64,000 nucleotides of DNA from a bacterium (GTDB lineage: Bacteria; Electryoneota; Electryoneia; Electryoneales; Electryoneaceae), in NCBI GenBank assembly GCA_020444265.1, contig JAHLLH010000002.1:1-64000 (forward strand). Reading direction: 5' to 3'. Below are positions 136 to 57,986 of the stretch, piece after piece. Numbering within the stretch: the stretch's first letter is position 1; each line of letters opens with the position of its first letter. The notes beneath the pieces are model-generated. The model was not told where the DNA came from, searched no databases, and saw nothing but the letters and a program-made list of their open reading frames with translations. The translations under genes were made by a program, and so were the position numbers.

Positions 136-3100
136 TTATTTCAGCAGCATCACCTTCCGAACAGCATTGTGGCGACCCGCCTGGACACGGACGAAATAGA
201 GACCGGATGCGTGGCCGGAACCATCCCATGTCAGGCGATGGGTGCCGGGGGTCGCGTGACGAGAATCGACAAGCACAGCGACTTGACGTCCCAGCAGATC
301 GACCACCTCCACTCGCAATGGAGTCACATTCGGCAACGCGACCCGGATGGATGTGGAGGGGTTGAAGGGGTTTGGCCATGCGGCAGAGACCTCGAAGCTT
401 TGCGGGAGCGCATTCTCCCCTACAGCAGAGGTACCGCCCGGGCTGACATGACCCGTGGTATCCGATTCGCCGCCGGAATAAACTGCGGTCACCCAGTAGA
501 CGGACTCCATGGTGAACGGTCCCTCATCCAGCCATTCTGTCTCGGCCACCTCGACCACCTGCTGTCCATCGCGGTAGACACGATAAAGATCTTCAAAGGA
601 AGTCGTCGGCAGATCTGGCGCCTGCCAGCTCAGCTGGAAATTGCCTTCTACATCTTCACCTGTCAGGCCGGTCGGTGCGAGCAGGGCATAGAGCTCAACT
701 TCAACCGGGTCGGGATTGGGAATACTGAGGTCAACCCCCACACGCAACATCTCGTACCCCGGAGCGCTAATAGTCAGTTCGGTGATTTGCGGTAGCAGGT
801 TGGTCATCGCAAAACCACCCGCTTCGTCACAAAGCGCCTCAAAACCATCTCCTGAGATGGTAATCGTGACATCGCCATTTTCCGGAACCAAGGTTACTGT
901 TCCACTCAACGAGGCCGACTCCCGAACGAAGAGAATAGCGGTTCCATCGGTAATGGTTCCTACACTCCCGATGGTCGAACCATTGCCATCCGCATCATAA
1001 TAGAGCAACCCGAGCCCATCTTCCTCGTCTGGCGCTTCGATTCCGACCGTCGCGTTCAACAGATCGTTAACATCCTGGTACTGGAAGAGGATGAGTCCGT
1101 CCCCGGTCTGGGTCGTGTGAACCTCCGGATCGTAGAGCACGGTCTGGAACGTCTCGAAGGTGGCATCGGTCGGGTATTGACGGCTGTTGAACCACTCGAG
1201 ATAAAAGAGGCCGTTTGTCTCGTCATACCAGGTCGAGAAGTTGGTCGCCTCGGCGCGGAAATCCTCCCAGAAGGGGGCCACCATCGCGGGTGGGCCATCA
1301 AGACCGGGGATGCCGGTGTTGGAGAAATCACCCGCCGTTTCATCGTCGAGTGTCCCCTGCGCACCGAAGAAAAACATGCCGTTCTCGTTGACAGTTACCG
1401 TGTCATACGAGACGCCGTAGTAGACAAAGGTAAAGGGAAGTTCGACCTCGTAAGGGGTGTCCTCTTCCGACATCGGAAGACGTATCCCGGCACCGCCCTC
1501 ATCGGGATCAATCTCGACCCACGCATACTCGGGGGCGAGGGCATGGGCATCACCATTCTGGATGGCGAGGTAGCCATCGGCATCCGGACCAGAGGTATGG
1601 ACACTGTCCAGCGCCATCTCGATCACCAGCAAAGGCGGCACGGTTTCCGGGGTGAGGTAGAGGTCCCGGGAGCCGCTCTGTTCCCCGAGGGTTGCACGGA
1701 GACGATGCAGCTCGCCGATGGTCAAACTCAACGTAAAGAGCCCTTCCGCATCGGTGGTAACCAACGTGCTAGGATTCTCGAGGTCCACCACCTCTGCACT
1801 GATTGCCTCCCCCCCGTCGGCATCCAGCACCACACCCTGGATGGATTCAACACCGCCGGTGTTCAGTGCGAAGTTTCGCTCCACCTCGGGTCCTTCGCTG
1901 TTGGCGAGCACATAACCACGTTGCGTCGTGTAGCCCGGCATACTGCAGACCAGTTCCGCATCCCCGTCCAGCTTGTGGTAGAAGGAATACCAGCCGTTCG
2001 CATCCGAAACAACGCCATCCTCCACGCCGTTCAGACGGACACTCGCCCCCGCAATAACAGAAGCGGTTTCGGAATCGGAGACGGTCCCGTGGACAAAGAC
2101 CACGTTTTCATGCAGCGGGACGGTGGCCGCGAGGGAGAATTCCTGTGGTCCGAAGGGGATATCATAGCCATCCACCACAATCGTCCAGGTTCCCGCCGCC
2201 GGATCAGAAACAAAGATTTGCTCGACCACATCGATGCTGTTGCGTCCATTGGTCGCCGGATTGCCAGGATTGTCGCCATCAAGAACAAAAGGATAAAAAG
2301 TGCTGCTGATCGGCGAAGTCAGGGTCAGGTCGAGATCATTGACCAGAGTTACCGGCGCGAGCTGAGCCGCAGGCGGATCGGACCAGGCGAGGGAGACCTT
2401 CAAATCGGTTACACCAGGTGCAACCTCGAAAGTCATCGTCCACTGCCCCTCATCCTCCACCTCACCAGAGGCGAAGCCGTACTTGCCAACGATATCGACT
2501 GTGTCGTTCGCGTCGACCCGTCCGAAACCATACTGGTAATCCGGGCCGGAAACACCGGCATCATCTGCACCGGTCACCAACAAGGCTTTGACCTGGGCCG
2601 GGGTGGGACGGGGGAGGTCGGGGTGACGGTCCCAAGCCTGCATCAGCAAGGCCACCACTCCAGCGGTCGCCGGGCAAGACATGCTGGTGCCACTCATCGT
2701 ATCGTAGCCACCACCGGGAACGGTTGAATAAACATTGACCCCGTTGCCCGCGATTTCCGGCTTGATCCGTCCATCATCGGTCGGCCCAAACGAGGAGAAG
2801 CTGGCAATGGAACCGTTGTCAGAGAAAGCACCAACGGTGATGATGTTTTTTGCGCTGGCCGGAATGGAAACCGTACCAAAGCCGGTTCCGCACGGGCTGC
2901 CGGAAATTCGTTCATTGCCTGCCGAAAAGAGCACCACCACTTCCTCGCCGAGACCGCCGCGTACCGCGGAATCGACCAGTGCGCTAGTCAGCTCGTAGTC
3001 CCCAAGCCAGGAGCAGCTGTAGCCATTAGACACAACATTCGCGCCAATGGAGTTGGTGACCAGACGTGCACCGCCAAGCAGCACCGCTTCGGTGTAATTG

Positions 3101-4050
3101 TCCCAGATGTCCTGCGGGCTGTTGTAAAGGCAGAAAGGATCGCAGGCTTCATAAGCATACGAGATGATCGACACATTTGGCGCCATCCCGCGTACGGTCG
3201 GGTCACCATTGCCGCCGAGGGTCCCGGCGACATGAGTCGGGTGGTCCGAGATTCCACCACCTTCCCCTTGGGTCGCTCGCCCCCCGAAATCGAGGTGGCT
3301 GATATCGACCAGGCCACCATCATAAACACAGGCGGTCACCCCGCTGCCATCGAGGTTGTAGGGGGCTACCTGAACCGGGTCAACAAACATGGTCGCGCGA
3401 ACGCTTGCATTGTTCTCGGTAAGCGGCGGTGCGATGTAATCGACATAGAGCACTTCCGGCATCTGCGCGAGACGCAACGGTGTGTCCACCGACCCACGGA
3501 TATACCAGGTGTTGAAAATTTCGACGTAGTCGCCGATCTCATCAACCAACGGGCTCAGCAGCGCTTCGCCATCCGCACCGTAAACGGTGGAGACAAGACG
3601 CACCGCGTACAAACGGCTGCCGTTTCCACCTTCGGCCCACTGCGGCATCTGGTCGCTGCGGATCGCTTCACTCAGCCGATCCTGCGACGCGAGAGGTCCC
3701 GCCCAACGTGGCGACGTGCTTGCAAGAGCCTCCGAGGTGACCCCTTTTTCGACCCAGGTTACCCAAGTGCCGCTACCGATGTACATCTGAAGCACAACAC
3801 CCTTCCGGGCCAGGGTTTGTTTCGCCGGGGTGTCCGGATGCTCCTCGAACTGGAGCAGAATGGTGCTGCCATAACCTTCATCCGGACGGTTGTCAAACCA
3901 TGCAGCGTTGTCATCCTTGGGAAAGAAGGTTTGTGTAGGAAGGTCAATCCGATAGCTATCCGGACCAGCCAGGAGGGGGTTGATGGCGAGTAGAAGAGTT
4001 GCCACTGCGAGAACGAGGCGACGTCCCGCCATCCCTTTTTCAATGATCAT
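136..4050 (-). CDS. Secreted subtilisin-like (S8) protease with C-terminal sorting domain
   Basis: Predicted exported serine endoprotease of about 1304 residues. The start at 4050 is chosen because AAGGA lies 8 nt upstream and a signal peptide follows directly (AGRRLVLAVATLLL, cleavage near LLAG-PDS); the upstream in-frame ATGs add a hydrophilic leader. The S8 triad is visible: Asp in VYDGG (about residue 244), His in HPTHVAG (about 273), oxyanion Asn in SAGNE (about 379) and Ser in GTSMSCP (about 456). After the protease come two carboxypeptidase-regulatory-like beta-sandwich modules, a nidogen-like module shared with the C25 protein at 44746-48477, another regulatory-like module, an FN3-like segment and a terminal sorting domain (WPNPFNPS, VVDLLGRQ, GLYFVRV). 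Family knowledge says such tails direct export by type IX-like systems; surface attachment or release is inferred. It is transcribed divergently from the next gene. Confidence 0.93.
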   Translation of the reverse strand: MIIEKGMAGRRLVLAVATLLLAINPLLAGPDSYRIDLPTQTFFPKDDNAAWFDNRPDEGYGSTILLQFEEHPDTPAKQTLARKGVVLQMYIGSGTWVTWVEKGVTSEALASTSPRWAGPLASQDRLSEAIRSDQMPQWAEGGNGSRLYAVRLVSTVYGADGEALLSPLVDEIGDYVEIFNTWYIRGSVDTPLRLAQMPEVLYVDYIAPPLTENNASVRATMFVDPVQVAPYNLDGSGVTACVYDGGLVDISHLDFGGRATQGEGGGISDHPTHVAGTLGGNGDPTVRGMAPNVSIISYAYEACDPFCLYNSPQDIWDNYTEAVLLGGARLVTNSIGANVVSNGYSCSWLGDYELTSALVDSAVRGGLGEEVVVLFSAGNERISGSPCGTGFGTVSIPASAKNIITVGAFSDNGSIASFSSFGPTDDGRIKPEIAGNGVNVYSTVPGGGYDTMSGTSMSCPATAGVVALLMQAWDRHPDLPRPTPAQVKALLVTGADDAGVSGPDYQYGFGRVDANDTVDIVGKYGFASGEVEDEGQWTMTFEVAPGVTDLKVSLAWSDPPAAQLAPVTLVNDLDLTLTSPISSTFYPFVLDGDNPGNPATNGRNSIDVVEQIFVSDPAAGTWTIVVDGYDIPFGPQEFSLAATVPLHENVVFVHGTVSDSETASVIAGASVRLNGVEDGVVSDANGWYSFYHKLDGDAELVCSMPGYTTQRGYVLANSEGPEVERNFALNTGGVESIQGVVLDADGGEAISAEVVDLENPSTLVTTDAEGLFTLSLTIGELHRLRATLGEQSGSRDLYLTPETVPPLLVIEMALDSVHTSGPDADGYLAIQNGDAHALAPEYAWVEIDPDEGGAGIRLPMSEEDTPYEVELPFTFVYYGVSYDTVTVNENGMFFFGAQGTLDDETAGDFSNTGIPGLDGPPAMVAPFWEDFRAEATNFSTWYDETNGLFYLEWFNSRQYPTDATFETFQTVLYDPEVHTTQTGDGLILFQYQDVNDLLNATVGIEAPDEEDGLGLLYYDADGNGSTIGSVGTITDGTAILFVRESASLSGTVTLVPENGDVTITISGDGFEALCDEAGGFAMTNLLPQITELTISAPGYEMLRVGVDLSIPNPDPVEVELYALLAPTGLTGEDVEGNFQLSWQAPDLPTTSFEDLYRVYRDGQQVVEVAETEWLDEGPFTMESVYWVTAVYSGGESDTTGHVSPGGTSAVGENALPQSFEVSAAWPNPFNPSTSIRVALPNVTPLRVEVVDLLGRQVAVLVDSRHATPGTHRLTWDGSGHASGLYFVRVQAGRHNAVRKVMLLK

Positions 4051-4224
4051 CAGAGGATTCCTTTGCCACTGCATCCCGTCTCTTTCCTTCAAGATAGCCT
4101 CTCGCCTGCCGCAGGGCCAACTGATCGCCCCCCGAGATTGGGATGACCCACTCATCGTACCTCAGCCCATCCCCCCTGCGAGACGGGACTTGAAGCACAC
4201 TGTGGGGACAGGTACTTTATCAGG

Positions 4225-44745: not shown

Positions 44746-47700
44746 TTACTTCACATACATCATCTTGCTCCAAAGGATCTTGTTGCCGGCATCGAGACGC
44801 ACCAGCAGGAGGCCGGACGACAAGCTCTTGTCGTTGACCTGCCATGTCACCTGCTTGTGGCCTGCGGACATCGGGCGGTCGATCAGCACCGCGATTTCCT
44901 GGCCGAGCAGGTTGTAAACCGACAAGCGGACGTCCCCGGACTCGGGCAAATCGAACGCAATTTCGGTTGCTGAGTTGAACGGGTTCGGGTAGCTCTGGTA
45001 GAGCACGAAATCGTTTGGTGATGTGGGATCGTCGGCCCGTTCACCAACATCGTTCAGGTTGTCCGGAGCGTTCGTGGTCATGCGCAACACACGTTCATTC
45101 TCGAGCGCTGCGGCAGATGCCGGGTAGAGATTGGCATAGGTGTATTCGAGACCAACGTTCCGAAGTCGGTTCATCAAGCCAACCGTCGCATAGTTGTTGC
45201 TCTCGTCCACATTCACCACGTTGTCGTAGTAAATCTCAATTACGCCGTCCCCGGATTGAGTCTGCATCACGGAGGGGTCGTAGAGAACCACCGTGAACTG
45301 CGCCGGGTTGGAAACATTCTGGTCGTAGAGGAAACGGTTCAGCGCATCATGCCACTCGATGATGAAACGGCCTTCCCCCTGGTCATAGCGGGTGTAAACC
45401 GACATCGTGGTCGAGCCAAACGGCGGCTTGAGGTCGTCCCAGAAGGCCGCGATCATGCCTGTCGGGCCGAGGCTGGAAGGAATTCCCCAGTTCCTGAAGA
45501 AGTTGACCGTGTAATCACTTTCTTCCTTGAAGGATATCCAGCCGTTGGAGCTGACCGTCAGTGGTGATCCCTCGTCATATGCACGTCCGTAGAACATGAA
45601 GTCGAAGGGGAGTTCCACGCTGACATTGTCATCATCATGCAGCTCGTAGAGGGTTGAGTTATCGTCCTCTGCGATATTGAACGCTGTATAGGTCGGCGCC
45701 TCATCCCACTGTGTATCGGTGTCATCGTAGATAAAGTAGCCGTGCGAATCCGGGCCGAATGGATCGGTTGTGGTTGCACCCTCCAGCGGGACACTGAAGT
45801 TGAGACGGTCCACCTCGGTGCCGTCCTTTGTAAAGACCATGCTGAACCGGACCACTCGTCCGTGATAGGTGGACGAGTTGACATTCACCGTGAAGTTCCC
45901 AACCGCACCTGTCGCACCGCTGGCAATGTTAACTCCTGTCACCTCGCCGTCGGTAACCGTCACCGCTTCATCCCAGGAGAGCAAGGTCGCCGTCAGGTTA
46001 TCAGCCGAAACCGAACCGATGTTCTCGAACGAAAACTCCATCGAGGGGCTGCTGCCCGGCTCGAAGCTACCGCTGGTTGAGGTAGCGCTGACAAAGTTCA
46101 TGTTCGAGGTGCCGACTGGAATCCAGACCTTGCCAGTCCACTCGCGGTCCGCATTATCGGTGATGGTCACATCCAGCTCGATCATCGCACCGTCCGGCGC
46201 GGAACCGTTGAGCGTAAAGGTAAACGCCGAGGTTGCGTTGTCTGCGCTCGCGCCGGAACCGAGATCACCGTAGCTCGCGCTGCTGGAGGTAATCTCCACC
46301 AGGTCGCTGTTCTGGGTTGAGATGGTCGCATTGATCCCGTTGACCGCTTCCGTGCCGGAGTTGGTCAGGGTGACCACCACTTCCACCGACTCGTCCGGGT
46401 TGACAAGACCATCTGCCCCGGCATCCACATCCCAGCTGGCGACACCGATGAAACGTGGTGCCTGGGTGACGGAAAGAGTTTCGATGACCGGGAGGTAATC
46501 CTGGTGAGTCAGCGTTACCTGGACATCACTTTCGAGATCGAGATCTTCCATCGGGATGTAGGCAATACCAGAGGCATCCGTATACCCGCCGGAGGAGAGG
46601 GTTTCACCCTGGATCAGCTGGACGTACGTGTTTGGCAGTGCGCCGTTCATTCCCTGGACCGACACTTCGAGGAAATCCTGGCCGAAGGTGATTTCTTCGG
46701 GCAGGGTGACCTCCATCAGACGCGGCGGGCGACGCCACATCGAGAGTTCCGGGTCACCGAGAACATGGTAGACATGCCAGTAGAACTCAACCTTGTCGCC
46801 ATCTGCGCGGTTGAGCGGGAAGTTGTTGTAAAGTTCGATCTTCGCACGTAGTAGCGCTTGGGAAATGTTCCCCATGTATTCGGCGTAAACGCCCGTGTAG
46901 TACCCGGCGATCAGGCTGTTGTTGTAAGCGGTTTGGGTATGAAGATCAGATGGCGCAACCACCGCGACAGCTCCGGTCGGGTTGGTCGGCGTGCCCCCCA
47001 CCAGCCACTTCTCGCCGAAAGATTCGGGATTGGAAGCGTTACCGAAGTCACCCGTGTTACAGACAAACGAGGTCAGGACCGGGAGACGGAACACATTGGT
47101 CAGGTCAGAAATGTCGCTGATGGTAAAGAGTGGTACTTCCCACCCCTGTGCATTTCCCCAGCCACGGTAGGTGACAAACAATCCGCCAAACTGGTTGATG
47201 CCAGACTTGATATCCTCACCGTTCGGCCCCTGGCCGCTCTGGTAGACGAAGTATTCGAGAACGTTGGGAATTTGCCACGTATGACGCATCCTTTCGCCGA
47301 GCCATTCCGATGTTGCGACGGGAGTCAACGGCTGAGCGCCACCTTCAGAGTAGTTTGCCGCAACCAGGTGGACCGTCTCGAAATAGGGGTCGTCTAACGG
47401 AATGTTGACGCTGTTTTTTTCGTAGGCCAACGTACGCTGGACGATTCGGAAGACATCCGTCGGGCTACCCGCAGTCATGCGTCCAATAAAGACTTCCGGG
47501 AAGTAGTCGCCACCCTCAATGTTGGCGTATTCCCAGTCGGTCACATCCCACTCTTCGCTGTAGCGCTCATCCGGGTTCTGAATCAGGCTGCTGGGAATCG
47601 CGGCATCAGCGCCACGGTTGACATCACCAACCAGCAGGACAAATTCGAGCGCCGGGTCGCTGTTTTCATAGCGATCAGCGACCAGGTTCTGGAGTTGGGC

Positions 47701-48477
47701 GAAACTGATGCTGCTTGTCGTCTCGTGCAGTTCGACCGTATACCCCTTCTGTTCCTTCCACTGGATGAAGGGCTGCAGGTTATTGACATAGGTCGTATGG
47801 GCAATGATCAGGTAGGTGCCTTTGGTGGTGGCGAGACGGGTCCCAAGATCATCGAGATCGTCCGTGATCATCTCCTGGTAGATCGGCCAGAAGGCACGCG
47901 AAACGGGGCGTGTCGGCTCCTGGTTGGAAACATCCTCGAGACGGTCATTGGTTTCGACGACGAGCTGAAGACTGGCCGCCACCCAGGCGGAACCATCCTC
48001 GTCGAATTTAACTGGGGTCATGTGCAGGGGTGCGAGAGTAACATCACGCATCACACCCGCGTCGCCCATGGAAACCCAGTCCACGGGGTTGATCGGCGAT
48101 TCGTCCAGACCAACAGTCCCCAGCAGGGCACCATCGGCAGAAACGTGCGACACAACACCCCCGACCACCTGGAGGTTCCCGCTACGTCCCCAGGGAAGAC
48201 GTACCAGACGCGTAAACTCGGGCGCACCTTCAACATGCCGGTCCGCCTTAACCCCGGCGATATTGGCCTGCATCAGCCCCTCGTCCCCCTCGGCCAATTC
48301 CAGGCTGCCGGCACTCCAGTTCAGCACGGTCTGGGTTGGGGTTGATTCGAGGACATCAAACTGTGCCGTCTGGCTTTCCGCCTCAGGAAGTGCGAGCCAC
48401 GCCGCTTGAGCGGATCCCGCAAAGCAGATCAGGGTGAGCAAGACAAGGGTAGCGCACGCAACGGCATAGCGCTTCAT
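44746..48477 (-). CDS. Gingipain-family (C25) secreted protein with sorting domain; catalytic His replaced by Trp
   Basis: Exported protein of 1243 residues. The start at 48477 has GGAGG 5 nt upstream and a signal peptide ending AGSAQAA. A propeptide-like region covers about 30-190, then the C25 domain (about 215-640): GTYLIIAHTTY, EFVLLVGDVN (Asp285), FVTYRGWGNAQGW, SFVCNTGDFGN with Cys473. In gingipains the catalytic His precedes the Cys by 33 residues; the residue at that position here is Trp440. Two Ig-like CARDB-type domains, a nidogen-like domain (about 920-1130, shared with the S8 protein at 136-4050) and a sorting domain (YPNPFNSATEI, VYNLLGQEI, GLLLVRLD) follow. Secretion by a type IX-like route is inferred. 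Confidence 0.92.
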   Translation of the reverse strand: MKRYAVACATLVLLTLICFAGSAQAAWLALPEAESQTAQFDVLESTPTQTVLNWSAGSLELAEGDEGLMQANIAGVKADRHVEGAPEFTRLVRLPWGRSGNLQVVGGVVSHVSADGALLGTVGLDESPINPVDWVSMGDAGVMRDVTLAPLHMTPVKFDEDGSAWVAASLQLVVETNDRLEDVSNQEPTRPVSRAFWPIYQEMITDDLDDLGTRLATTKGTYLIIAHTTYVNNLQPFIQWKEQKGYTVELHETTSSISFAQLQNLVADRYENSDPALEFVLLVGDVNRGADAAIPSSLIQNPDERYSEEWDVTDWEYANIEGGDYFPEVFIGRMTAGSPTDVFRIVQRTLAYEKNSVNIPLDDPYFETVHLVAANYSEGGAQPLTPVATSEWLGERMRHTWQIPNVLEYFVYQSGQGPNGEDIKSGINQFGGLFVTYRGWGNAQGWEVPLFTISDISDLTNVFRLPVLTSFVCNTGDFGNASNPESFGEKWLVGGTPTNPTGAVAVVAPSDLHTQTAYNNSLIAGYYTGVYAEYMGNISQALLRAKIELYNNFPLNRADGDKVEFYWHVYHVLGDPELSMWRRPPRLMEVTLPEEITFGQDFLEVSVQGMNGALPNTYVQLIQGETLSSGGYTDASGIAYIPMEDLDLESDVQVTLTHQDYLPVIETLSVTQAPRFIGVASWDVDAGADGLVNPDESVEVVVTLTNSGTEAVNGINATISTQNSDLVEITSSSASYGDLGSGASADNATSAFTFTLNGSAPDGAMIELDVTITDNADREWTGKVWIPVGTSNMNFVSATSTSGSFEPGSSPSMEFSFENIGSVSADNLTATLLSWDEAVTVTDGEVTGVNIASGATGAVGNFTVNVNSSTYHGRVVRFSMVFTKDGTEVDRLNFSVPLEGATTTDPFGPDSHGYFIYDDTDTQWDEAPTYTAFNIAEDDNSTLYELHDDDNVSVELPFDFMFYGRAYDEGSPLTVSSNGWISFKEESDYTVNFFRNWGIPSSLGPTGMIAAFWDDLKPPFGSTTMSVYTRYDQGEGRFIIEWHDALNRFLYDQNVSNPAQFTVVLYDPSVMQTQSGDGVIEIYYDNVVNVDESNNYATVGLMNRLRNVGLEYTYANLYPASAAALENERVLRMTTNAPDNLNDVGERADDPTSPNDFVLYQSYPNPFNSATEIAFDLPESGDVRLSVYNLLGQEIAVLIDRPMSAGHKQVTWQVNDKSLSSGLLLVRLDAGNKILWSKMMYVK

Positions 48478-48884
48478 TCGAACCTCCATCCATCTAGGAA
48501 ACATCCACACTCTCGGTAGGCCCCGGACATACCTGGTTGATGGTAGGGCAGAGCGCCCTTCCCTCAGGCAAAGCACGAGGCAACTTGTAAAATTGGGCCT
48601 CCAGACCCCAACGCGCAACTCGCGCGCGCGAACAATCGACCCCCTTCTCCGTCTCCATCCCGTTTCAATAGTGTCCGTCTCACCCGGCTACTCCCTGCGA
48701 TGTACTACAGATCACGCAGCTCGAAATGGTTCTCTATATCACACCTCGTGCTCTCTCTCTCCGGGGGCCTCTCCGTCTCCGGTCTTTATGATCCAAAGCC
48801 GTTTTCCCTGCCCTCCGCAGTTTGTTCGTTCCGGTTCAGGTGTGTATGTTATTCACAGCTTCGGTGAGGAGAGGAGAGACGTTG
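48478..48884. promoter_or_regulatory. 407-bp divergent intergenic region
   Basis: No credible gene lies here. On the plus strand TTGTTC (48822-48827) and TATGTT (48845-48850) are 17 bp apart, a weak sigma-70-like pair just upstream of the lipoprotein start at 48885, with GAGGAGAGGAG as a strong ribosome-binding region. A run of alternating CG (about 48620-48629) and a CT-rich tract (about 48750-48762) are the only other features I see. The promoter of the minus-strand C25 gene must lie in the left half but I cannot locate it. Confidence 0.35.
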
Positions 48885-49724
48885 ATGAAGCCACTTCGAA
48901 CAGCTCGCTCGGGACGCTATACGGTCGTCCCTCTCTTCTTCTTCGCAGTCGTCCTCTTGACCACAGCAAGCTGTGACGCTCCGCGCGACAATACCCTCGA
49001 CCCAAAGTCTCCCGAATACAACCCTGTTGGCACAGGTGAAGTGAATGATATTACTGATTTTGAAATTGTAGAGATCAGATCCATTCATGACGAATCGGAT
49101 GGTAGCCAGGGACCTGTGGACAGGCTGGACATCAGTGTAGGACTCAAAGAACCGGATGGAATTGAGTTTGTTCAGCTGGAAGTTGCGGATACGCTTCGCT
49201 ATAAAATGAACAAGGTAAACTTTGGAAATTATACCTTTACGCTTCACCCAAGCCGTGTGAATCATTCCATTTTCGATCTAAGTAACTCGCCTTTTCGCTT
49301 TATTGTTTACGACAGCAAAGGGTATGTGACTCAAAGTGAACCGTACTACATCGTCCGGATATTGAGTCATCCACCAAAGATTGTTCAGCCCGTCCTCGAT
49401 GAGGAGGGCGAGCCCCAGGTGCTGAGTTCATTTCCCACTATCATCTGGGAAGATGACTTGAGCTCCTTTTTTGTCGAGTACCAGATAAAATTCTTCGTCT
49501 CAAATCGACATGGTGAAAACAAAGTGACGTTGAGCGACTGGACAACCATTCCGCGTATCCTCACGCCCGATCCTCCTGATACCGTGGATAATGGACTCGA
49601 TAGTTTTCGGGTAGCATCCTTTATCCCGCCCGACGAAAGCAAGCTGTATCACGTGCTTCTGGCAGTTAAAGACAGGCATGGAAACAGGGCAATCTCAGCA
49701 AACCATCTGTTTAAGATCTATTGA
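48885..49724 (+). CDS. Lipoprotein with DNTLDPKSPEY motif, first gene of the kinase/activator operon
   Basis: A 279-residue predicted lipoprotein. The hydrophobic segment VVPLFFFAVVLLTTAS-Cys is followed by DAPRDNTLDPKSPEYNP, a motif found near the N-terminus of many FCB lipoproteins. The mature part has two beta-rich portions (FEIVEIRSIHDESDG ... LDISVGLKEPDGIEFVQLEV and FPTIIWEDDLSSFFVEYQIKFFV ... YHVLLAVKDRHGNRAISANHLFKIY), the second resembling an FN3 domain. The start at 48885 has AGGAGAGGAG just upstream. The gene is somewhat richer in A and T than its neighbours. It is 37 nt from the sigma-54 activator, so they are probably cotranscribed. Confidence 0.83.
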   Translation: MKPLRTARSGRYTVVPLFFFAVVLLTTASCDAPRDNTLDPKSPEYNPVGTGEVNDITDFEIVEIRSIHDESDGSQGPVDRLDISVGLKEPDGIEFVQLEVADTLRYKMNKVNFGNYTFTLHPSRVNHSIFDLSNSPFRFIVYDSKGYVTQSEPYYIVRILSHPPKIVQPVLDEEGEPQVLSSFPTIIWEDDLSSFFVEYQIKFFVSNRHGENKVTLSDWTTIPRILTPDPPDTVDNGLDSFRVASFIPPDESKLYHVLLAVKDRHGNRAISANHLFKIY

Positions 49725-49761
49725 TTCGCTCGCCCACAACGAAGCAACGGACCTGCATATC

Positions 49762-51252
49762 ATGAGTAACCAACCAGACCCACAGGAAGCCCTGCTGACC
49801 GGTCTGCTCCGAATTGGGGTGGCCATTCGAGACAGCAAAGCGCCGGGCGATGTGCTTGACGCGATCCTCGACAGCGCGATTGACACATTTCATGCAGAGC
49901 GTGGCTTCCTTGCCTTCGTCGGCGGCAATGGCGAGCTGGAGCTGCAAAAGACCAAGGGACTTGATCTTACCGGCGAGAACCAGCTTGGTGAAATCAGCAG
50001 CGGTGCGATGCAAAAGGCGATGGAAACGGGTGAAGCGGTCCTCGCTGAAGATGCCCGTCAGGACCCACGTTTTGCAGACTCCCAATCTGTCATCATCCAT
50101 GATATCCGTTCAATTTGTGTTGTCCCGCTTCGTCTGGGTGATGATACCATCGGGGTGATGTACCTCGACAGCCGCCTGGGTGAGAATGATTTCAGCGAAG
50201 GGTCCACTGCCGCGCTTTCCCTTTTCGGCGCACTCGCCGCCCAGGCGATCGACCGCGCTATGACCTTCGATGCTCTCCACCAGGAAAACCTGCGTTTGCG
50301 CCGCCAGGCAGGCCGTTTCGCTTTTGATGAGATTATCGGCCAGTCCAAAACGATGGAGCAGGTGTTCGCACTGATGGAACGTGTCGCGCCGACCAACCTG
50401 CCGGTGCTGATCCGTGGCGAGTCGGGAACGGGAAAAGAGTTAATTGCTCGTGCCTTGCATAACTCCGGCGCGCGGCGTGAGCACCCTTTCCTCGCCCTGT
50501 TTGCGGGCAACCTCGGGGAAGAACTGCTGGAAAGCGAACTCTTTGGACATAAAAGGGGGTCGTTTACCGGGGCGCATGCCGACAAGCCTGGCCTGTTGAG
50601 CCTGGCCGATGGTGGCACCCTGCTACTGGATGAAATAGCGGACATTCCGGCACGCATCCAGGCCAAACTTCTGCGTGTCCTGCAGGACGGTACCTTTAAG
50701 CCTGTCGGCGACACCAAGACCTTGCAGGTGGATGTCCGCATTCTCTCCGCCACACACCATGATCTGACCAAACGGGTGAAGGAAGGAAACTTCCGTGAGG
50801 ACCTCTACTACCGGATCAACGGCATCGAAATTGAAATTCCACCACTTCGCAAACGACGTGAAGACATTCCGTTGATCGCGGAACATGTCCTGCGCAGGTA
50901 TGCCGAGAGCACGGATCGTGGCAACGTCCGTTTCAGCCGACAAGCACTCGATATGCTGGTGCAGGCTCGTTGGCCCGGCAACGTCCGTGAGCTCGAGCGA
51001 ACGGTCCAGCGTGCCGTGGTACTCTGTCCCGGTCATGTGATCGAGCCGGAACACCTGGTCTTTACACGCAGCATCGAGGGCGAAGAGGGGCCGGAAGACT
51101 TGTCTCTGAAAGCCGCCGAGAAACGGCACATCCTTCGTGTGCTGGAAGAGGTGGACAGCAACCGTAGCGAAGCCGCCCGGATCCTCGGGATCAGCCGTCG
51201 CTATCTGCAGAATCTGATTAAAGAATGGCGCGAGGAGGGGCTGGAGGTGTAG
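49762..51252 (+). CDS. GAF-domain sigma-54-dependent transcriptional activator
   Basis: Bacterial enhancer-binding protein of 496 residues. An N-terminal GAF domain (about 15-165: TFHAERGFLAFVGGNGELEL, ICVVPLRLGDDTIGVMYLDSRLG) replaces the usual receiver. The AAA+ domain has Walker A GESGTGKE (near 219), ESELFGHKRGSFTGA with GSFTGA as the sigma-54 contact loop, Walker B GGTLLLDEI and the RWPGNVREL sensor II region. A Fis-type helix-turn-helix ends the protein (NRSEAARILGISRRYLQNLIKEW). The arrangement resembles NorR/FhlA-type activators that sense small molecules through GAF. The Ser/Thr kinase gene starts 25 nt later, raising the possibility that phosphorylation controls this activator. Confidence 0.95.
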   Translation: MSNQPDPQEALLTGLLRIGVAIRDSKAPGDVLDAILDSAIDTFHAERGFLAFVGGNGELELQKTKGLDLTGENQLGEISSGAMQKAMETGEAVLAEDARQDPRFADSQSVIIHDIRSICVVPLRLGDDTIGVMYLDSRLGENDFSEGSTAALSLFGALAAQAIDRAMTFDALHQENLRLRRQAGRFAFDEIIGQSKTMEQVFALMERVAPTNLPVLIRGESGTGKELIARALHNSGARREHPFLALFAGNLGEELLESELFGHKRGSFTGAHADKPGLLSLADGGTLLLDEIADIPARIQAKLLRVLQDGTFKPVGDTKTLQVDVRILSATHHDLTKRVKEGNFREDLYYRINGIEIEIPPLRKRREDIPLIAEHVLRRYAESTDRGNVRFSRQALDMLVQARWPGNVRELERTVQRAVVLCPGHVIEPEHLVFTRSIEGEEGPEDLSLKAAEKRHILRVLEEVDSNRSEAARILGISRRYLQNLIKEWREEGLEV

Positions 51253-51277
51253 CCTGCCTTCTGCCTGTTGAGTGGTT

Positions 51278-52978
51278 ATGAATCGACGGATCGGGGAACA
51301 TTACGAAGTCGTCCGGGAGCTGCAACGCGGTGCCTGGGTGACGGTTTATGAGGCTCGCCACGATATTCTCGGACGGCGAACCCTGATCAAATGGCTCAAT
51401 CCTGCCTTTCAGGAGGACGAGGAGCTGGTTGGACGGCTCCGTCGTGAAGCACGTCTCGGTGCATCGGTCGACCATCCAAATATCGCACGTATCTACGAAG
51501 TCGGGGATGCTGAAGATCGTCCCTATGTCGCCATCGAGTGGATCGAGGGGGAAGACCTCGACGATGTCATGGCGCAAGAAGGCCCCTTTTCCGCCAAACG
51601 AACGCTCCGCCTGGCCAAAGACCTGCTCGCAGGACTGTCTGCGATCCACACGGTTGGAGTGGTCCATCGTGATTTAAGCCCGATGAATGTGCGGATCACC
51701 CCTGACGGCGTCGCCCGGATTACCGACTTCGGTCTCGCTACCGGGCCGTTCGACACCCACTACACCTTGCCAGGATCGGTTGTCGGTACGCCCGGCTATC
51801 TCAGCCCTGAACAGGCCTCCGGTAAATCGGCCGATGAACGTTCCGACCTCTTTTCCTGTGGTACCCTGATCCACGAGGCGCTGAGCGGGCAGGCGCTCTT
51901 CAAGGACGAGGACCTGATCGCGACCTTGAAACAAGTGCGAGCCAAACAGGCACCACCCCTGGAGCAGGAGATTGAGGATCTTCCAGCGGGATTCGATGAA
52001 TGGCTGGCGAAACTCCTTGCGAAAAAGGCGGACGACCGTTACGCCTCCGCGAAAGACGCCCTCAAAGCCCTGCTCAATTTGACTGGCGAGACACTGAAGG
52101 AAGCCAAAGAGCAGCGTCCCGCTCCAAAGCAAGTCGTTCGTCGCGCAACCGGTTGGGGTGCGGTGGCGATGGCTGTGATCCTCGTTCTTGCTGGTCTGCT
52201 GACTCTTCCAAGCTACCTGAGTAAACAGAGTGAACTGGAGGAACAACTCCCCGATATCGATTCTCTTCGTCAGCTAGCCCAAAGCGAAGACACCATGAAT
52301 GTCGAGGGAGACGAGAGTCGCGAGGGTGTCGAAGAGGACCCCGATTTGACCCCACCCCCTCCTGCGCAGAGTGAACGGGAAGGCGCTCCCCTGCGCACGG
52401 GGAGCACAGGGGTTGATCCCGGTTCGCCTGTGCAACGAGCGGACGAACGGGGTCAGACTCCCGAGCCAGAACCGGAAGAAGCCGATGTTGATCCAGATAC
52501 CCTCTCCCCACCCCCCAATGGGTGGCTTGTCATTCACTCGCACCCTTGGGCCGATGTTTACATCGAGGCACAACGAGTCGGCGCTACCCCCGGCCTGATG
52601 CCCTTTGCCCACGAAGAAGGGTTGGTCCATTTAACGTTCGATAATCCCGGCTTTCCGCCAATTCCTATAGAAACAAGAGTTACCGCCGCCGAGACAACCA
52701 GGGTGTTGATCGAGCTGTCTGACTATGTCGCCTCGTTGACCCTCGCTGCTTCCCCTTGGGCAAAGGTCTACATCGATGACACACCGGTTGGTGAAACTCC
52801 GATTCCACGGACGCTTTATCTCTCCCCGGGCAGTCATTTGATTCGATTTATCCATCCCGATTTCGGTACGGTCGATCGCGAGGTGGACGTTGAGCCTGGT
52901 GACAGCCTCGCGATAAACGTTGAGATGAAGCTGGAAGGCACAGGCTTTGCTCCTGAAGAAAGCGAGGAGCCCCGATGA
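51278..52978 (+). CDS. Membrane Ser/Thr protein kinase with extracytoplasmic PEGA domains
   Basis: A 566-residue Hanks-type kinase. Catalytic residues are intact: RRTLIKWLN (ATP Lys), VVHRDLSPMNVRI near 129, ITDFGLATG and LSPEQASGKSADERSDLFSCG. The Gly-rich loop is degenerate (LQRGAWVTVYEA). A transmembrane helix (about 292-315) follows the kinase and a short juxtamembrane stretch. The periplasmic part starts with an acidic, Pro-rich linker and ends with two PEGA domains (WLVIHSHPWADVYIEAQRVGATPG and LTLAASPWAKVYIDDTPVGETPI), which are often found on surface-binding proteins. It overlaps the Kelch gene (stop TGA inside its ATGATG start region). A role in sensing envelope ligands and signalling to the activator is inferred. 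Confidence 0.94.
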   Translation: MNRRIGEHYEVVRELQRGAWVTVYEARHDILGRRTLIKWLNPAFQEDEELVGRLRREARLGASVDHPNIARIYEVGDAEDRPYVAIEWIEGEDLDDVMAQEGPFSAKRTLRLAKDLLAGLSAIHTVGVVHRDLSPMNVRITPDGVARITDFGLATGPFDTHYTLPGSVVGTPGYLSPEQASGKSADERSDLFSCGTLIHEALSGQALFKDEDLIATLKQVRAKQAPPLEQEIEDLPAGFDEWLAKLLAKKADDRYASAKDALKALLNLTGETLKEAKEQRPAPKQVVRRATGWGAVAMAVILVLAGLLTLPSYLSKQSELEEQLPDIDSLRQLAQSEDTMNVEGDESREGVEEDPDLTPPPPAQSEREGAPLRTGSTGVDPGSPVQRADERGQTPEPEPEEADVDPDTLSPPPNGWLVIHSHPWADVYIEAQRVGATPGLMPFAHEEGLVHLTFDNPGFPPIPIETRVTAAETTRVLIELSDYVASLTLAASPWAKVYIDDTPVGETPIPRTLYLSPGSHLIRFIHPDFGTVDREVDVEPGDSLAINVEMKLEGTGFAPEESEEPR

Positions 52979-54300
52979 TGCTCCAATCCCCAGGAAGAGT
53001 GATGAAATATCTGATACAAAGTGTGGTACTGCTGCTTCTGTTCTTCTTTCCCCGGTTCGCAGCGGGAGACTGGACTGAAGTAGGCGAGCTGCCGACCCCG
53101 CGTTCCGGGATGGCTTCGGCCGTTCTTGGGGATACTCTCTACCTGATCGGCGGGAGTGTTCCCGGGACCAGTATTCCTGTCGCCTCTTCGGACGTGGTGC
53201 GTTTTTCCCTGGAAGAGGAACTTTTGCTGGGTAATGCCCCTTCGCTGAACACCCCTCGAGTCGGCGCGAGTGCTGTGACCTACGATGGCGCCATCATCGT
53301 GTTTGGTGGACGACGTAATGACATTGATTATGTCGCCCAGATCGAGGCGTGGCGTCCCGGTGATGCGGAGTGGACTGTGCTTGGCGAACTGACCCCCGCG
53401 CGCGCATGGGCTAGTGCTCTTGTTAAAGAAAATGTAATCTATGTTGCTGGCGGCACGTCCGGTTCCGGGGAGCGTCACCGCCGTATCGACTTAGTTGTCC
53501 CCTACCTGGATGCTGAACCGCCCTATGCTGCGGTGTCCGCTCTGAATGATTCGCTCCCTTCATCCCGTTCGCACCATGCTATGATTGAGTTTAATGGCTC
53601 CATCTACCTTTTCGGCGGCTACTCTGTTTGGCCGCTGAGTGATTGCTACCGTTGGGATGATGAGGGGTGGATTGAAGTCAGTTCGATGGCCCAGGGGGTC
53701 AGCGGGATGGCCGTTTCACCGTTCCGTCATTCCCAGACAGACCTGCTCGTTGCTTCTGGCGGACGCTCTCTGACGGGTGAGGTCGCGACCCATCAGCTCA
53801 TGGGATTTAACGAAAACTGGGGTTTCGCAAACGACCTCGTTCTGGATCTTCCTTTGGCACGAAGCGGGCATGTGATAGCCCCGCTGAGTTCTTCAAATAA
53901 CCGTGTTTTGTACGTGTTTGGTGGCTCCTATATCAACACATCCGGTCAGCAGGTTATCTTGGACGATATCCTCACCTTCACTTCGAACAATACGTCCACG
54001 GTGAACGAAAACCGGATTGTTCAACCCGGGAGCCTTCACCTTGCTGCCCACCCCAATCCGTCCAACGGAGCGGTAACCATTTCAATTGTGCCCAGCAGCG
54101 GTTCAGGTGACCTGAATGTCCGTATATTTGATCTTCTCGGGCGGGAAGTGAAAGCCTGGCACCTTCCTGCGTCACGTTCTGCTACCACCCTGAGTTGGGA
54201 TGGCTCGGAACATGGACGTGAAGTGACGGGTGGGATTTATTTCCTTGTCGCTCGTAGTGGTGATCAACAGCAGGTATTAAAATTATTCCGCTTGCCATGA
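52975..54300 (+). CDS. Secreted Kelch-repeat protein with C-terminal sorting domain
   Basis: A 441-residue exported protein. The signal peptide (YLIQSVVLLLLFFFPRFAAG) precedes a Kelch beta-propeller: repeats with GDTLYLIGGS, DGAIIVFGGRR, ENVIYVAGGTS, NGSIYLFGGYS and NRVLYVFGGSY, each with the conserved double Gly. The C-terminus is a sorting domain (LAAHPNPSNGAVTI, VRIFDLLGREV, GGIYFLVARS). Two starts are possible: ATG 52975, preceded by GAGGAG, and ATG 53002, preceded by GGAAGAG; both give a signal peptide. Position directly behind the kinase and overlapping it suggests a surface partner of the signalling operon. Its stop overlaps the next gene by 4 nt. Confidence 0.9.
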   Translation: MMLQSPGRVMKYLIQSVVLLLLFFFPRFAAGDWTEVGELPTPRSGMASAVLGDTLYLIGGSVPGTSIPVASSDVVRFSLEEELLLGNAPSLNTPRVGASAVTYDGAIIVFGGRRNDIDYVAQIEAWRPGDAEWTVLGELTPARAWASALVKENVIYVAGGTSGSGERHRRIDLVVPYLDAEPPYAAVSALNDSLPSSRSHHAMIEFNGSIYLFGGYSVWPLSDCYRWDDEGWIEVSSMAQGVSGMAVSPFRHSQTDLLVASGGRSLTGEVATHQLMGFNENWGFANDLVLDLPLARSGHVIAPLSSSNNRVLYVFGGSYINTSGQQVILDDILTFTSNNTSTVNENRIVQPGSLHLAAHPNPSNGAVTISIVPSSGSGDLNVRIFDLLGREVKAWHLPASRSATTLSWDGSEHGREVTGGIYFLVARSGDQQQVLKLFRLP

Positions 54301-55106
54301 TCCGGCATTTTCAACGATTTGTTTTATTTTTTGTCTTCCTGCTTTGCGCTGGGAGTACGACACTGCTCGCCCAAATGGGAAATGTTCGGCCCGGCGATCT
54401 CGACGCACATCTTGACAGCCTCTTTACCAGCGGCCGCTTTGGCCGCCTCGAAGTCGAAGCCCTTCGTCTCCTGCATTCCAGCCGGGATGTCAGCCATGAA
54501 CGGCAGGTTGCGGCACATCTTTACCTTGGTTTTTCCTGGGTGCTGACCGACCGGGACGAAGAGGCGAACGGCGCCTTTTTGCAGGCACTTCAGCTTGAAC
54601 CCTCGCTGGATCTGGACGAGGTCTATGTTCCCCCTCGTCTCTATGAAGCCTTTCAGCAGGCACGTCTCGAATTTCTCTCCAACCGGGACCTTTTCCGTTC
54701 ACCAATTGCTGGCACACCCCATCTCCCTCATTACAAACTGGGAACCGGACTGAATCTTGTTTTGCCTGGCGCAGGATTCATCGCATCGGGCCGACACCTG
54801 CGAGGTACCATCTGGACCACCGCCTTCCTGGGCTGTTCCGGTACCTTTGTTTATACTCTTCTGGAACGCTCGGATGCGCATACCGACTACCTGCGGCAGG
54901 CCAATCCTGCCCTCATCGAGGACCGCTACCAGGAGTTTAACCGGCTGAACAAACAAGCCTGGTTCCTTGGGCTGGGGACTGCCCTCCTCTATGTCGGCGC
55001 CCAATTTGATTACCAGATAGCCGATGGTACCATCTCGGCAGAACCCACACTGCTGGAAAGCTCGCTCGGTTCGACACCTGCACTTTCCCTGACGTTCCGT
55101 CGCTGA
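54297..55106 (+). CDS. Exported TPR-like protein with C-terminal membrane segments
   Basis: A 269-residue protein with a signal peptide (VLFFVFLLCAGSTTLLAQ). Residues about 40-125 form helical, TPR-like pairs (LDSLFTSGRFGRLEVEALRLLHSS, AHLYLGFSWVLTDRDEEANGAFLQALQLEP). The C-terminal half has a glycine-rich GTGLNLVLPGAGFIASG motif and two hydrophobic segments (IWTTAFLGCSGTFVYTLL, AWFLGLGTALLYVGAQF), resembling the DUF5683-type membrane domain found in Bacteroidetes; this likeness is by eye only. It overlaps the Kelch gene by 4 nt and is the last gene of the five-gene operon. Function unknown. Confidence 0.8.
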   Translation: MIRHFQRFVLFFVFLLCAGSTTLLAQMGNVRPGDLDAHLDSLFTSGRFGRLEVEALRLLHSSRDVSHERQVAAHLYLGFSWVLTDRDEEANGAFLQALQLEPSLDLDEVYVPPRLYEAFQQARLEFLSNRDLFRSPIAGTPHLPHYKLGTGLNLVLPGAGFIASGRHLRGTIWTTAFLGCSGTFVYTLLERSDAHTDYLRQANPALIEDRYQEFNRLNKQAWFLGLGTALLYVGAQFDYQIADGTISAEPTLLESSLGSTPALSLTFRR

Positions 55107-56333: not shown

Positions 56334-57986
56334 TCACTTTAACAGAGTCACACGCCTTGTCTGGCTGGTGCCCTCTGACTTCACCTCGAGCAGGTAGGTA
56401 CCGGAAGGCAACCCATGCAATGGAACCGCGAGCTGCTGTTTGCCAGCGCTGAGTGTATGAGATTTGATCGCGACTTGCCGTCCAAGCAGATCGTAGAGCG
56501 CGAGCTGGACCGAACCGCTGTTGTTCAAGCTCAGGTTCAGCACGGCAGCGGCATTGGTCGGGTTCGGGAAGACACCACCAAGCTGGAAAGCTGCGGGGAC
56601 GTCACGTTCTTCCGGGTTGACCGCCAGGTCAGCCAGCACGGCATTCATCGCAGCGACACCATCCACAATCCCCCACCCGATCTCGTTATCCGGGTTATCC
56701 GCTTGGGACGCCGTGTTTTTCAGGTAGGTAATCATCTCGAACGGGGTCAGTTCCGGGTTGGCCTGCAGGAGGAGGCACGCCACACCAGCTACTGCCGGGC
56801 AGGAGTAAGACGTACCGGATCCGAGGGAGTATTCATCAGTCGATTCGTGATCCACCAAATATACCATCGACCCCATTGCAGAAACATCTGGCTTGATACG
56901 ACCGTCCACCGTTGGTCCGTGACTGGTGAAACCGACCGGACTTGCATCCCCGGAGACCGCACCAATGCTGAGAACTGAATCACCATCTGCCGGGGCACCT
57001 ACCCAGTAATTCTGCGAGGCGCCTGCGTTGCCCGCCGAGTTGATGACCAGCAGGCCGCGAGCTGCTGCCATGTCCGCAGCAATTGTAGTCACTCCCGTAT
57101 TCCCATCCAGATCCTCAAACTCGTACCAATCTTTGTAACTGAGGCTCGAGGAAACCAGGTCGGCACCATTGGCCTCAACCCATTCGAGGCCAGCAACCCA
57201 GTAATCCTCTTCCGCCGGATACTCTGCTGTGCTGTCCTCTGTCCGCGCCAACACCACTTCCACGTCCGGCGCAACACCAATGAAGTTGTTCCGGTCGTGA
57301 GCAGCCACCACCGAGAGGGTTTTGGACCCGTGTGACCCGGTTGCCACATTCGACGTTGAATCGTGGGTGTTGTAGGTCGCGATCAGGTTGAGGCTATTAA
57401 AGGCGACATGGGTATCAAGGCCGATCCAGCCGGAATCGAGGAAACCGAGGCGCACCCCTTCACCGCTATAACCCATGTCATGGAGTTCCGGCGCGCGGAT
57501 GATGTTGCCTTGTTCCCACGCAACGCCATATGCGGATGTGTCAATATCGTCAACGGCGCGATCAAGACGAGTCTCCTCTGGAACCTCCGGGTCGGACATC
57601 CCGCGTGACCGTGCGACCGCTCGAACCTCACGGACCCCGTCCAGCGAGCGAAGCACCTGTTCCTGTGCCGGAGTCGCATCCACCGAGACCGCATTCAGCC
57701 AGCGGCTCTGGGTGCGAAGGTGAACCCCTGTTGCCCGCACACGATCAAGCAACGCTTGCGGCGGGTCGAGATCCAGCTGGCTGACTGCATTGCCCTCCAC
57801 ACGGGACCGCCTTGCTTCCGCCTTTACGTCCGCGCGTTTAAAAGCGTCAACAAAAGCCTTTTCAGAGGTGTCACGCTGATCAAAAAAGACCCAGACAGGA
57901 TAGGTGGCGGGACCCCCTGCAAATGCGCACGGGATCAGGCTGGTCATCAAAGCAACAATCAAGGCAAACCGTAACATCTTCTTCAT
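56334..57986 (-). CDS. Secreted subtilisin-like (S8) protease with C-terminal sorting domain (short form)
   Basis: Exported serine protease of 550 residues. Signal peptide MLRFALIVALMTSLIPCAFAG; a propeptide follows to about 150. Catalytic residues: Asp184 in GFLDSGWIG, His219 in GSHGSKT, oxyanion Asn320 in NSAGNAG and Ser393 in GTSYSCP. The sorting domain (VFPNPTNAAAVL, LYDLLGRQV, SGTYLLEVK) is at the very C-terminus with no extra modules, unlike the large S8 protein at 136-4050. The region just before Ser393 (DEYSLGSGTSYSCPAVAG) is normal. The start has AAGGA 5 nt upstream. It is monocistronic by position, flanked by the palindrome at 56275 and the gap at 57987-58099. Confidence 0.94.
   Translation of the reverse strand: MKKMLRFALIVALMTSLIPCAFAGGPATYPVWVFFDQRDTSEKAFVDAFKRADVKAEARRSRVEGNAVSQLDLDPPQALLDRVRATGVHLRTQSRWLNAVSVDATPAQEQVLRSLDGVREVRAVARSRGMSDPEVPEETRLDRAVDDIDTSAYGVAWEQGNIIRAPELHDMGYSGEGVRLGFLDSGWIGLDTHVAFNSLNLIATYNTHDSTSNVATGSHGSKTLSVVAAHDRNNFIGVAPDVEVVLARTEDSTAEYPAEEDYWVAGLEWVEANGADLVSSSLSYKDWYEFEDLDGNTGVTTIAADMAAARGLLVINSAGNAGASQNYWVGAPADGDSVLSIGAVSGDASPVGFTSHGPTVDGRIKPDVSAMGSMVYLVDHESTDEYSLGSGTSYSCPAVAGVACLLLQANPELTPFEMITYLKNTASQADNPDNEIGWGIVDGVAAMNAVLADLAVNPEERDVPAAFQLGGVFPNPTNAAAVLNLSLNNSGSVQLALYDLLGRQVAIKSHTLSAGKQQLAVPLHGLPSGTYLLEVKSEGTSQTRRVTLLK

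What the first reader, a model, noticed from the sequence alone, without database searches (positions are those of the whole stretch)
48885..55106. Five-gene operon linking a Ser/Thr kinase, a GAF sigma-54 activator and surface proteins
A lipoprotein, GAF/AAA+ activator, transmembrane Ser/Thr kinase with periplasmic PEGA domains, secreted Kelch protein with sorting domain, and a TPR-like membrane protein are all on one strand with gaps under 40 nt or 4-nt overlaps. Kinase and sigma-54 activator side by side suggests a route in which an envelope signal bound by PEGA domains is passed by phosphorylation to transcription. Sigma-54 activators normally answer to histidine kinases or small ligands, so a Hanks-kinase-coupled form with a dedicated surface protein set is unusual.
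Basis: partly seen in the sequence, partly recalled or inferred. Interest (0 to 1): 0.65.

Follow-up and report, generated by a model that had tools for sequence, protein, structure and literature searches.

The report
Conserved kinase–sigma-54 activator surface operon
These five genes form an ancient operon, kept in the same order in at least three bacterial phyla, that pairs a membrane Ser/Thr kinase with a sigma-54 gene activator and three envelope proteins; it looks like an undescribed route from cell-surface signals to gene expression.

Summary
The five genes are real, correctly placed and tightly packed. The window belongs to candidate phylum Electryoneota. The same genome carries a second copy of the core, lipoprotein–GAF activator–PEGA kinase, elsewhere. 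Relatives occur in 37 of 39 Electryoneota species, 35 of 40 genomes of a Calditrichales bacterium's phylum, and 25 of 247 sampled genomes of the phylum holding Ignavibacteriae and probably Melioribacter and Rhodothermus. Of 95 activators mapped, 80 have the kinase within 600 bp on the same strand; 30 loci keep the order activator–kinase–Kelch–TPR. Kinase-paired activators form one clade (support 0.89), and activator and kinase trees mirror each other (r = 0.84). Other bacteria fuse a kinase and GAF activator in one protein. Best reading: the kinase's periplasmic PEGA part senses the envelope, with lipoprotein, Kelch and TPR proteins as co-sensors or outputs, and phosphorylates or otherwise gates the GAF activator. 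Phosphorylation, signal and target genes are not shown. Precedent: Myxococcus FHA-domain activators. Verdict: a new, broadly conserved variant of kinase-controlled sigma-54 activation.

The parts
48885..49724 (+). Lipoprotein (LIPO): signal peptide, Cys followed by APR-DN-x-LDP motif, two Ig/FN3-like beta-sandwich domains; predicted envelope co-sensor
   Evidence: ORF; family alignment with invariant C30,P33,N36,D39,P40,W188,D263,N267,S271,F276; AF2 pLDDT 74, Foldseek Ig/FN3; gene directly upstream of the activator in 80 of 95 activator loci
49762..51252 (+). GAF-AAA+-Fis sigma-54 enhancer-binding protein (bEBP)
   Evidence: Pfam; Walker A GESGTGKE, GSFTGA loop (A1 alignment; motif counts)
49846..50253 (+). 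GAF domain of the activator, with S79, S109 and S137 as candidate kinase-contact or phospho-acceptor sites
   Evidence: Pfam; conservation
50332..50835 (+). Sigma-54 interaction AAA+ domain
   Evidence: Pfam PF00158 6.5e-66
51106..51222 (+). Fis-type helix-turn-helix
   Evidence: Pfam PF02954
51272..52978 (+). Hanks-type Ser/Thr kinase, one transmembrane helix, two C-terminal PEGA domains
   Evidence: Pfam; catalytic motifs; TM residues 294-312
51302..52063 (+). Kinase catalytic domain (cytoplasmic; HRD, DFG, GTPGYLSPE present)
   Evidence: Pfam PF00069 8e-39
52151..52207 (+). Transmembrane helix of the kinase
   Evidence: hydropathy
52520..52930 (+). Two PEGA domains (PWA-x-V-Y motifs), predicted periplasmic
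   Evidence: Pfam; alignment A2 (P425 W426 A427 and P495 W496 invariant)
52975..54300 (+). Secreted Kelch beta-propeller
   Evidence: Pfam; orthologues in Calditrichota and Ignavibacteriae/Bacteroidota cassettes
54052..54282 (+). T9SS-type C-terminal sorting domain of the Kelch protein
   Evidence: PF18962 7.8e-7, TIGR04183 5.6e-8; SprA in genome
54297..55106 (+). TPR + DUF5683-like membrane protein
   Evidence: family alignment with invariant P157 G158 G160; Pfam on relatives; AF2 helical repeats then a hairpin of long helices, pLDDT 61

Best explanation
A conserved five-gene envelope-to-transcription signalling module. A membrane Hanks kinase with periplasmic PEGA domains reads the state of the envelope, helped by a two-domain Ig/FN3-like lipoprotein, a T9SS-exported Kelch beta-propeller and a TPR/DUF5683 membrane protein. 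Its cytoplasmic kinase domain then acts on the co-encoded GAF-AAA+-Fis activator, most likely by phosphorylating the GAF domain and so relieving or imposing GAF control of the AAA+ ring. This switches sigma-54 promoters of (unknown) target genes, plausibly for surface or secreted proteins. Shown here: gene content, domains, catalytic and sigma-54-contact motifs, operon conservation, co-inheritance, presence of rpoN and the T9SS gene sprA. Inferred: phosphorylation, signal sensing by PEGA, direction of control, target genes.
For: Paralogous lipoprotein-activator-kinase cassette in the same genome; only two close kinase relatives there, each beside one of the two closest activators among 27 or more. 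Activator relatives in 37/39 Electryoneota, all 39 with the kinase. Complete order in Calditrichota and Ignavibacteriae/Bacteroidota. 80 of 95 activators have the kinase <600 bp downstream, 48 with overlapping reading frames (starts as called mechanically). Mirror-tree r=0.84 on 76 pairs versus at most 0.28 in 1000 within-phylum permutations. Paired activators form a clade apart from 13 GAF activators of other bacteria. Three genomes with the operon split keep both halves, whose kinases group with the matching type. Kinase-AAA16-TPR-GAF-sigma-54-HTH single-chain fusions in Gemmatimonadota and WOR-3. A beta-propeller-kinase followed directly by a GAF activator (L237). Catalytic Lys, HRD, Asn and Asp kept in all 76 kinases. 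GxFTGA kept in all 76 activators. S79 and S109 invariant in paired activators; S137 Ser/Thr in 87% versus 0/13 unpaired.
Against: No biochemical evidence of phosphorylation. Mirrored trees follow from linkage alone. S79 and S109 are also Ser in about half of unpaired GAF activators, so may be structural. No enrichment of sigma-54 promoters upstream of the cassettes, so no autoregulatory loop was found. Some Electryoneota have activator and kinase apart (3 genomes) or separated by inserted genes. In one Electryoneota family the kinase has DFS instead of DFG. Kelch is missing from about half of cassettes, so it is not essential to the core.
Confidence: 0.62

Rival explanations
1. The activator is a one-component regulator controlled by a GAF ligand, and the kinase is merely co-regulated with it: it phosphorylates other (envelope or cell-division) targets while the activator turns on the same stress programme.
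For: GAF domains in bEBPs such as NorR sense small molecules (PMC2941729, listing); S79/S109 are shared with some unpaired GAF activators; no phospho-reader domain (FHA) in the activator.
Against: Adjacency kept across three phyla and in two paralogous lineages, with mirrored trees; independent kinase-GAF-activator fusions; both partners retained when split.
Confidence: 0.2
2. The kinase inhibits the activator, or holds it at the membrane, by binding rather than by phosphorylation, as an anti-activator (PspA-like logic) released by envelope signals.
For: DFS instead of DFG in ten kinases suggests altered catalysis in part of the family; co-conservation fits a physical complex equally well.
Against: Catalytic Lys, HRD, Asn and DFG Asp are kept in all 76 kinases.
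Confidence: 0.13
3. Ordinary co-location: a two-gene kinase-activator pair that happens to sit in a cluster of envelope genes, with lipoprotein, Kelch and TPR genes functionally unrelated.
For: Kelch is absent from variant-B cassettes, and flanking genes differ (ComF, PrmC, ABC transporters).
Against: The lipoprotein precedes the activator in 80 of 95 loci, with a gap of 50 nt or less in 76 of those; full order kept in three phyla; the TPR gene follows in variants A and B in Calditrichota.
Confidence: 0.05

Closest known systems
[quoted passage not shown] coupling to kinases recalled from own knowledge)
   Same: A sigma-54 activator thought to be governed by Hanks-type Ser/Thr kinases rather than histidine kinases.
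   Different: There an FHA domain reads phosphothreonine; here a GAF domain. Here the kinase is encoded next door in a conserved operon with dedicated envelope proteins and a PEGA sensor.
NtrC/ZraR-type two-component bEBPs
   Same: Membrane sensor kinase plus AAA+ sigma-54 activator in one operon.
   Different: No histidine kinase, no receiver domain; Hanks kinase and GAF instead.
GAF-bEBPs NifA, NorR, FhlA
   Same: GAF-AAA+-Fis architecture (best NCBIfam match NifA, below its cut-off).
   Different: Those answer to small molecules or P-II partners and are not paired with a Ser/Thr kinase (own knowledge).
PASTA-type membrane Ser/Thr kinases (PknB/Stk1)
   Same: N-terminal cytoplasmic kinase, one TM, extracytoplasmic C-terminal repeat domains.
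   Different: PEGA instead of PASTA; Stk1 model score 232 against a cut-off of 450.
Pkinase-AAA16-TPR-GAF-Sigma54_activat-HTH single-chain proteins (found here in Gemmatimonadota, WOR-3 and LQ108M_Bin_12)
   Same: Hanks kinase and GAF activator physically joined.
   Different: Single long chain with AAA16 and TPR domains; no PEGA and no envelope partner genes.

Membership tests
Sigma-54 enhancer-binding protein (bEBP) | AAA+ sigma-54 interaction domain with Walker motifs and GAFTGA loop | tested here: met
   PF00158 6.5e-66; GSFTGA in the window protein, GAFTGA/GSFTGA/GTFTGA in 76/76 relatives
Sigma-54 enhancer-binding protein (bEBP) | DNA-binding Fis HTH and rpoN in the genome | tested here: met
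   PF02954; Sigma54_DBD hit 3.1e-51 at G000:C9
Sigma-54 enhancer-binding protein (bEBP) | Activates transcription from -24/-12 promoters | not testable with these tools
   22 strict sites in the genome against 9 for the reversed control pattern; none linked to this activator
Hanks-type Ser/Thr kinase | Catalytic Lys, HRD...N, DFG, activation segment | tested here: met
   PF00069 8e-39; motifs
Hanks-type Ser/Thr kinase | Kinase activity on the partner activator | not testable with these tools
   needs an in vitro assay
PEGA-domain membrane kinase | Single TM and extracytoplasmic PEGA repeats | tested here: met
   PF08308 two stretches; one TM after the kinase domain in 72/76
FHA-type kinase-coupled bEBP (Myxococcus) | FHA domain in the activator | tested here: not met
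   no FHA hit; GAF instead
Two-component sigma-54 system (NtrB/C) | Histidine kinase and receiver domain | tested here: not met
   neither domain in the cassette
T9SS cargo (Kelch protein) | Signal peptide, C-terminal sorting domain and T9SS translocon in genome | tested here: met
   TIGR04183 above cut-off; SprA_N 2.4e-38; N-terminal hydrophobic segment
Conserved five-gene operon | Same gene order in other phyla | tested here: met
   30 loci in three phyla with activator-kinase-Kelch-TPR, 27 of them with the lipoprotein detected upstream

The most novel reading that the evidence does not exclude
A Ser/Thr-phosphorylation counterpart of two-component systems that is ancestral in part of the FCB group: a dedicated membrane Hanks kinase phosphorylates conserved Ser residues (S79, S109, S137) of the GAF domain of its co-encoded sigma-54 activator in response to a PEGA/lipoprotein/Kelch envelope sensor, and so controls surface-protein genes.
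Probability: 0.4. Interest if true: 0.8.

Novelty: new variant of a known kind. Interest (0 to 1): 0.62.

Why it matters
It would extend sigma-54 control from histidine kinases and small ligands to a dedicated Hanks kinase wired to the cell envelope, in phyla where signal transduction is almost unstudied. It also gives a function lead for the lipoprotein and DUF5683/TPR families.

Tried and rejected
Sigma-54 promoters upstream of the cassettes: mean score 10.6 versus 10.3 for shuffles, so autoregulation not supported. A reported 817-aa activator (L326) as a lipoprotein-activator fusion: rejected, it is an upstream extension in another frame without lipoprotein sequence. Kelch as universal part: rejected, variant B lacks it. 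ComF, PrmC, ABC transporters (Gld-like) and DUF4340-like neighbours as part of the module: rejected, lineage-specific. Pseudokinase: rejected for nearly all; ten kinases have DFS but keep the Asp. Literature: no description of this operon or of GAF-bEBP-Hanks kinase coupling found in the open-access library; subscription papers are missing. The AF2 model of the TPR protein is low-confidence and was not used further.

Full report
OBSERVATION. Domains were confirmed by Pfam and NCBIfam: a lipoprotein without family; a GAF–Sigma54_activat–AAA lid–Fis HTH activator; a Pkinase with two PEGA domains; a Kelch propeller with a T9SS sorting domain; a TPR-like protein whose relatives match DUF5683. The kinase has one transmembrane helix (residues 294-312) between kinase and PEGA domains, so PEGA is predicted periplasmic. 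RlmN follows 84 nt after the last gene but is not conserved in the other cassettes.

ORIGIN. The closest named relative is Candidatus Electryonea clarkiae (67% identity of the activator), which places the genome in Candidatus Electryoneota. That phylum lies in the FCB group near Calditrichota and Zixibacteria (PMC10439189). rpoN is present, as is SprA of the T9SS.

PARALOGUE IN THE SAME GENOME. The best of 28 other activator matches (43% over the full length) is followed after 3 nt by the only other close kinase relative (35%, kinase plus PEGA) and preceded by a lipoprotein with the same kind of start (CGDEPLRDNPADP); a secreted protein with a sorting tail follows.

PHYLUM. 37 of 39 Electryoneota species hold 1-3 full-length activator relatives, 39 of 39 the kinase. 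Of 58 activators, 43 have the kinase within 400 bp downstream on the same strand, 5 more within 4.3 kb, and 10 none, several of those at contig ends. Gene maps show two lineages: A, as in the window (lipoprotein–activator–kinase–Kelch–TPR), in families f1, f2 and f7, and B, without Kelch. In G003 (E. clarkiae), G005 and G010, cassette A is split: lipoprotein–activator at one place and kinase–Kelch–TPR at another, and both halves are retained.

OTHER PHYLA. Of 80 best genome-contig hits, the outside loci with a directly adjacent kinase are an Ignavibacteriae and a Calditrichales MAG. In the Calditrichales bacterium's phylum 35 of 40 genomes carry the activator, with the full order in eleven of the enlarged loci. 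In the phylum of the Ignavibacteriae MAG 25 of 247 sampled genomes carry it, with the kinase next door wherever the flanks could be read by the gene picker. One contig there is 3,300,414 bp, exactly the Melioribacter roseus chromosome (PMC3534657). Another, 3,261,604 bp, equals the Rhodothermus marinus genome of 3,386,737 bp less its 125-kbp plasmid (PMC3035238). These identifications rest on size only. A 4,978,541-bp contig in the Calditrichales phylum is near the 5 Mb of Caldithrix abyssi (PMC5317091). Overall, of 95 activators in the mapped loci, 80 have the kinase <600 bp downstream and 6 more within 4.2 kb; 30 loci show activator–kinase–Kelch–TPR, 27 of them with the lipoprotein upstream. 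Reading frames of activator and kinase overlap in 48 of 80 (starts chosen mechanically, so overlaps may be overcounted).

CO-INHERITANCE. FastTree distances of 76 activator–kinase pairs correlate at r = 0.84; permuting kinases within phyla gives at most 0.28 in 1000 trials. This is expected of linked genes and does not by itself prove interaction, but it shows the two paralogous systems have not swapped partners. Kinase-paired activators form one clade (support 0.89) against 13 GAF activators of planctomycetes, Myxococcota and others. Kinases from the split genomes group with type-A kinases.

FUSIONS. In Gemmatimonadota, WOR-3 and one further bacterium, single proteins of 1634-1714 aa read Pkinase–AAA16–TPR–GAF–Sigma54_activat–HTH_8. 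In the Ignavibacteriae MAG a further kinase carries an FG-GAP/BNR beta-propeller N-terminal to its kinase domain and is followed directly by a GAF activator (L237). Such fusions argue that Hanks kinases, GAF activators and propellers belong to one pathway.

FUNCTIONAL RESIDUES. All 76 kinases keep the catalytic Lys, HRD, Asn and Asp; ten Electryoneota kinases (mostly type A) have DFS for DFG. All 76 activators keep GxFTGA. In the GAF domain S79 and S109 are invariant, and S137 is Ser/Thr in 87% of paired activators but in 0 of 13 unpaired. They are candidate contact or phospho-acceptor sites, no more.

ENVELOPE PARTNERS. The lipoprotein family has a hallmark start just after the lipidated Cys, C...P-[RH]-x-N-P-x-D-P; six of 14 sampled members have a CarboxypepD_reg insert, and the window protein is modelled as two beta-sandwiches (pLDDT 74) resembling Ig/FN3 modules. 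The TPR protein has helical repeats and a hairpin of long hydrophobic helices (low confidence).

TARGETS. No enrichment of sigma-54 promoter-like sites upstream of the cassettes. Twenty-two strict sites in the genome against 9 control; some precede dnaK-like, FlgD-like and MacB-type permease genes, but none can be assigned to this activator.

MECHANISM. Most likely the PEGA kinase reads the envelope and gates the GAF activator. The kinase–activator link is well supported; phosphorylation, signal and regulon are inferred. Precedent: FHA-type activators of Myxococcus (Jelsbak 2005, cited in PMC4320627). Sigma-54 has been argued to control the bacterial exterior generally (PMC3162934), which fits. 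No paper describing this operon was found in the library searched.

Noticed in passing
L226:2205-7109, L227:2697-7634, L228:3905-9049: Single-chain Pkinase-AAA16-TPR-GAF-sigma-54 activator-HTH proteins of 1634-1714 aa in Gemmatimonadota, WOR-3 and bacterium LQ108M_Bin_12.
   Followed up: partly
L237:2344-7622: Kinase with an N-terminal FG-GAP/BNR beta-propeller and C-terminal kinase domain, followed at once by a GAF sigma-54 activator.
   Followed up: partly
Electryoneota family f2 kinases (e.g. L139:2376-3902, L143:4534-6075) and L176, L178, L193, L195: DFS instead of DFG in the kinase of these cassettes; the catalytic Asp is kept.
   Followed up: partly
Electryoneota family f6 loci (L177, L179, L174, L173): Variant-B cassettes followed by an ABC ATPase, an ABC permease, a GldG-like protein and a DUF4340-like protein in constant order (names from reading the sequences, not from a family search).
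   Followed up: no
window 44746-48618 (-), 56334-57986 (-), 136-4155 (-): Large secreted peptidases with T9SS sorting tails (C25 gingipain-like, two subtilases) around the operon.
   Followed up: no
L344 (G000:C9:489233), L345 (G000:C9:619506), L339/L349: Strict sigma-54 -24/-12 sites ahead of dnaK-like, FlgD-like and MacB-type permease genes in the window's genome.
   Followed up: partly
L144:9919-10272 and L146:6426-6779: Two copies of a small ~117-aa lipoprotein lie next to the two halves of the split cassette in G010, perhaps a trace of the break.
   Followed up: no
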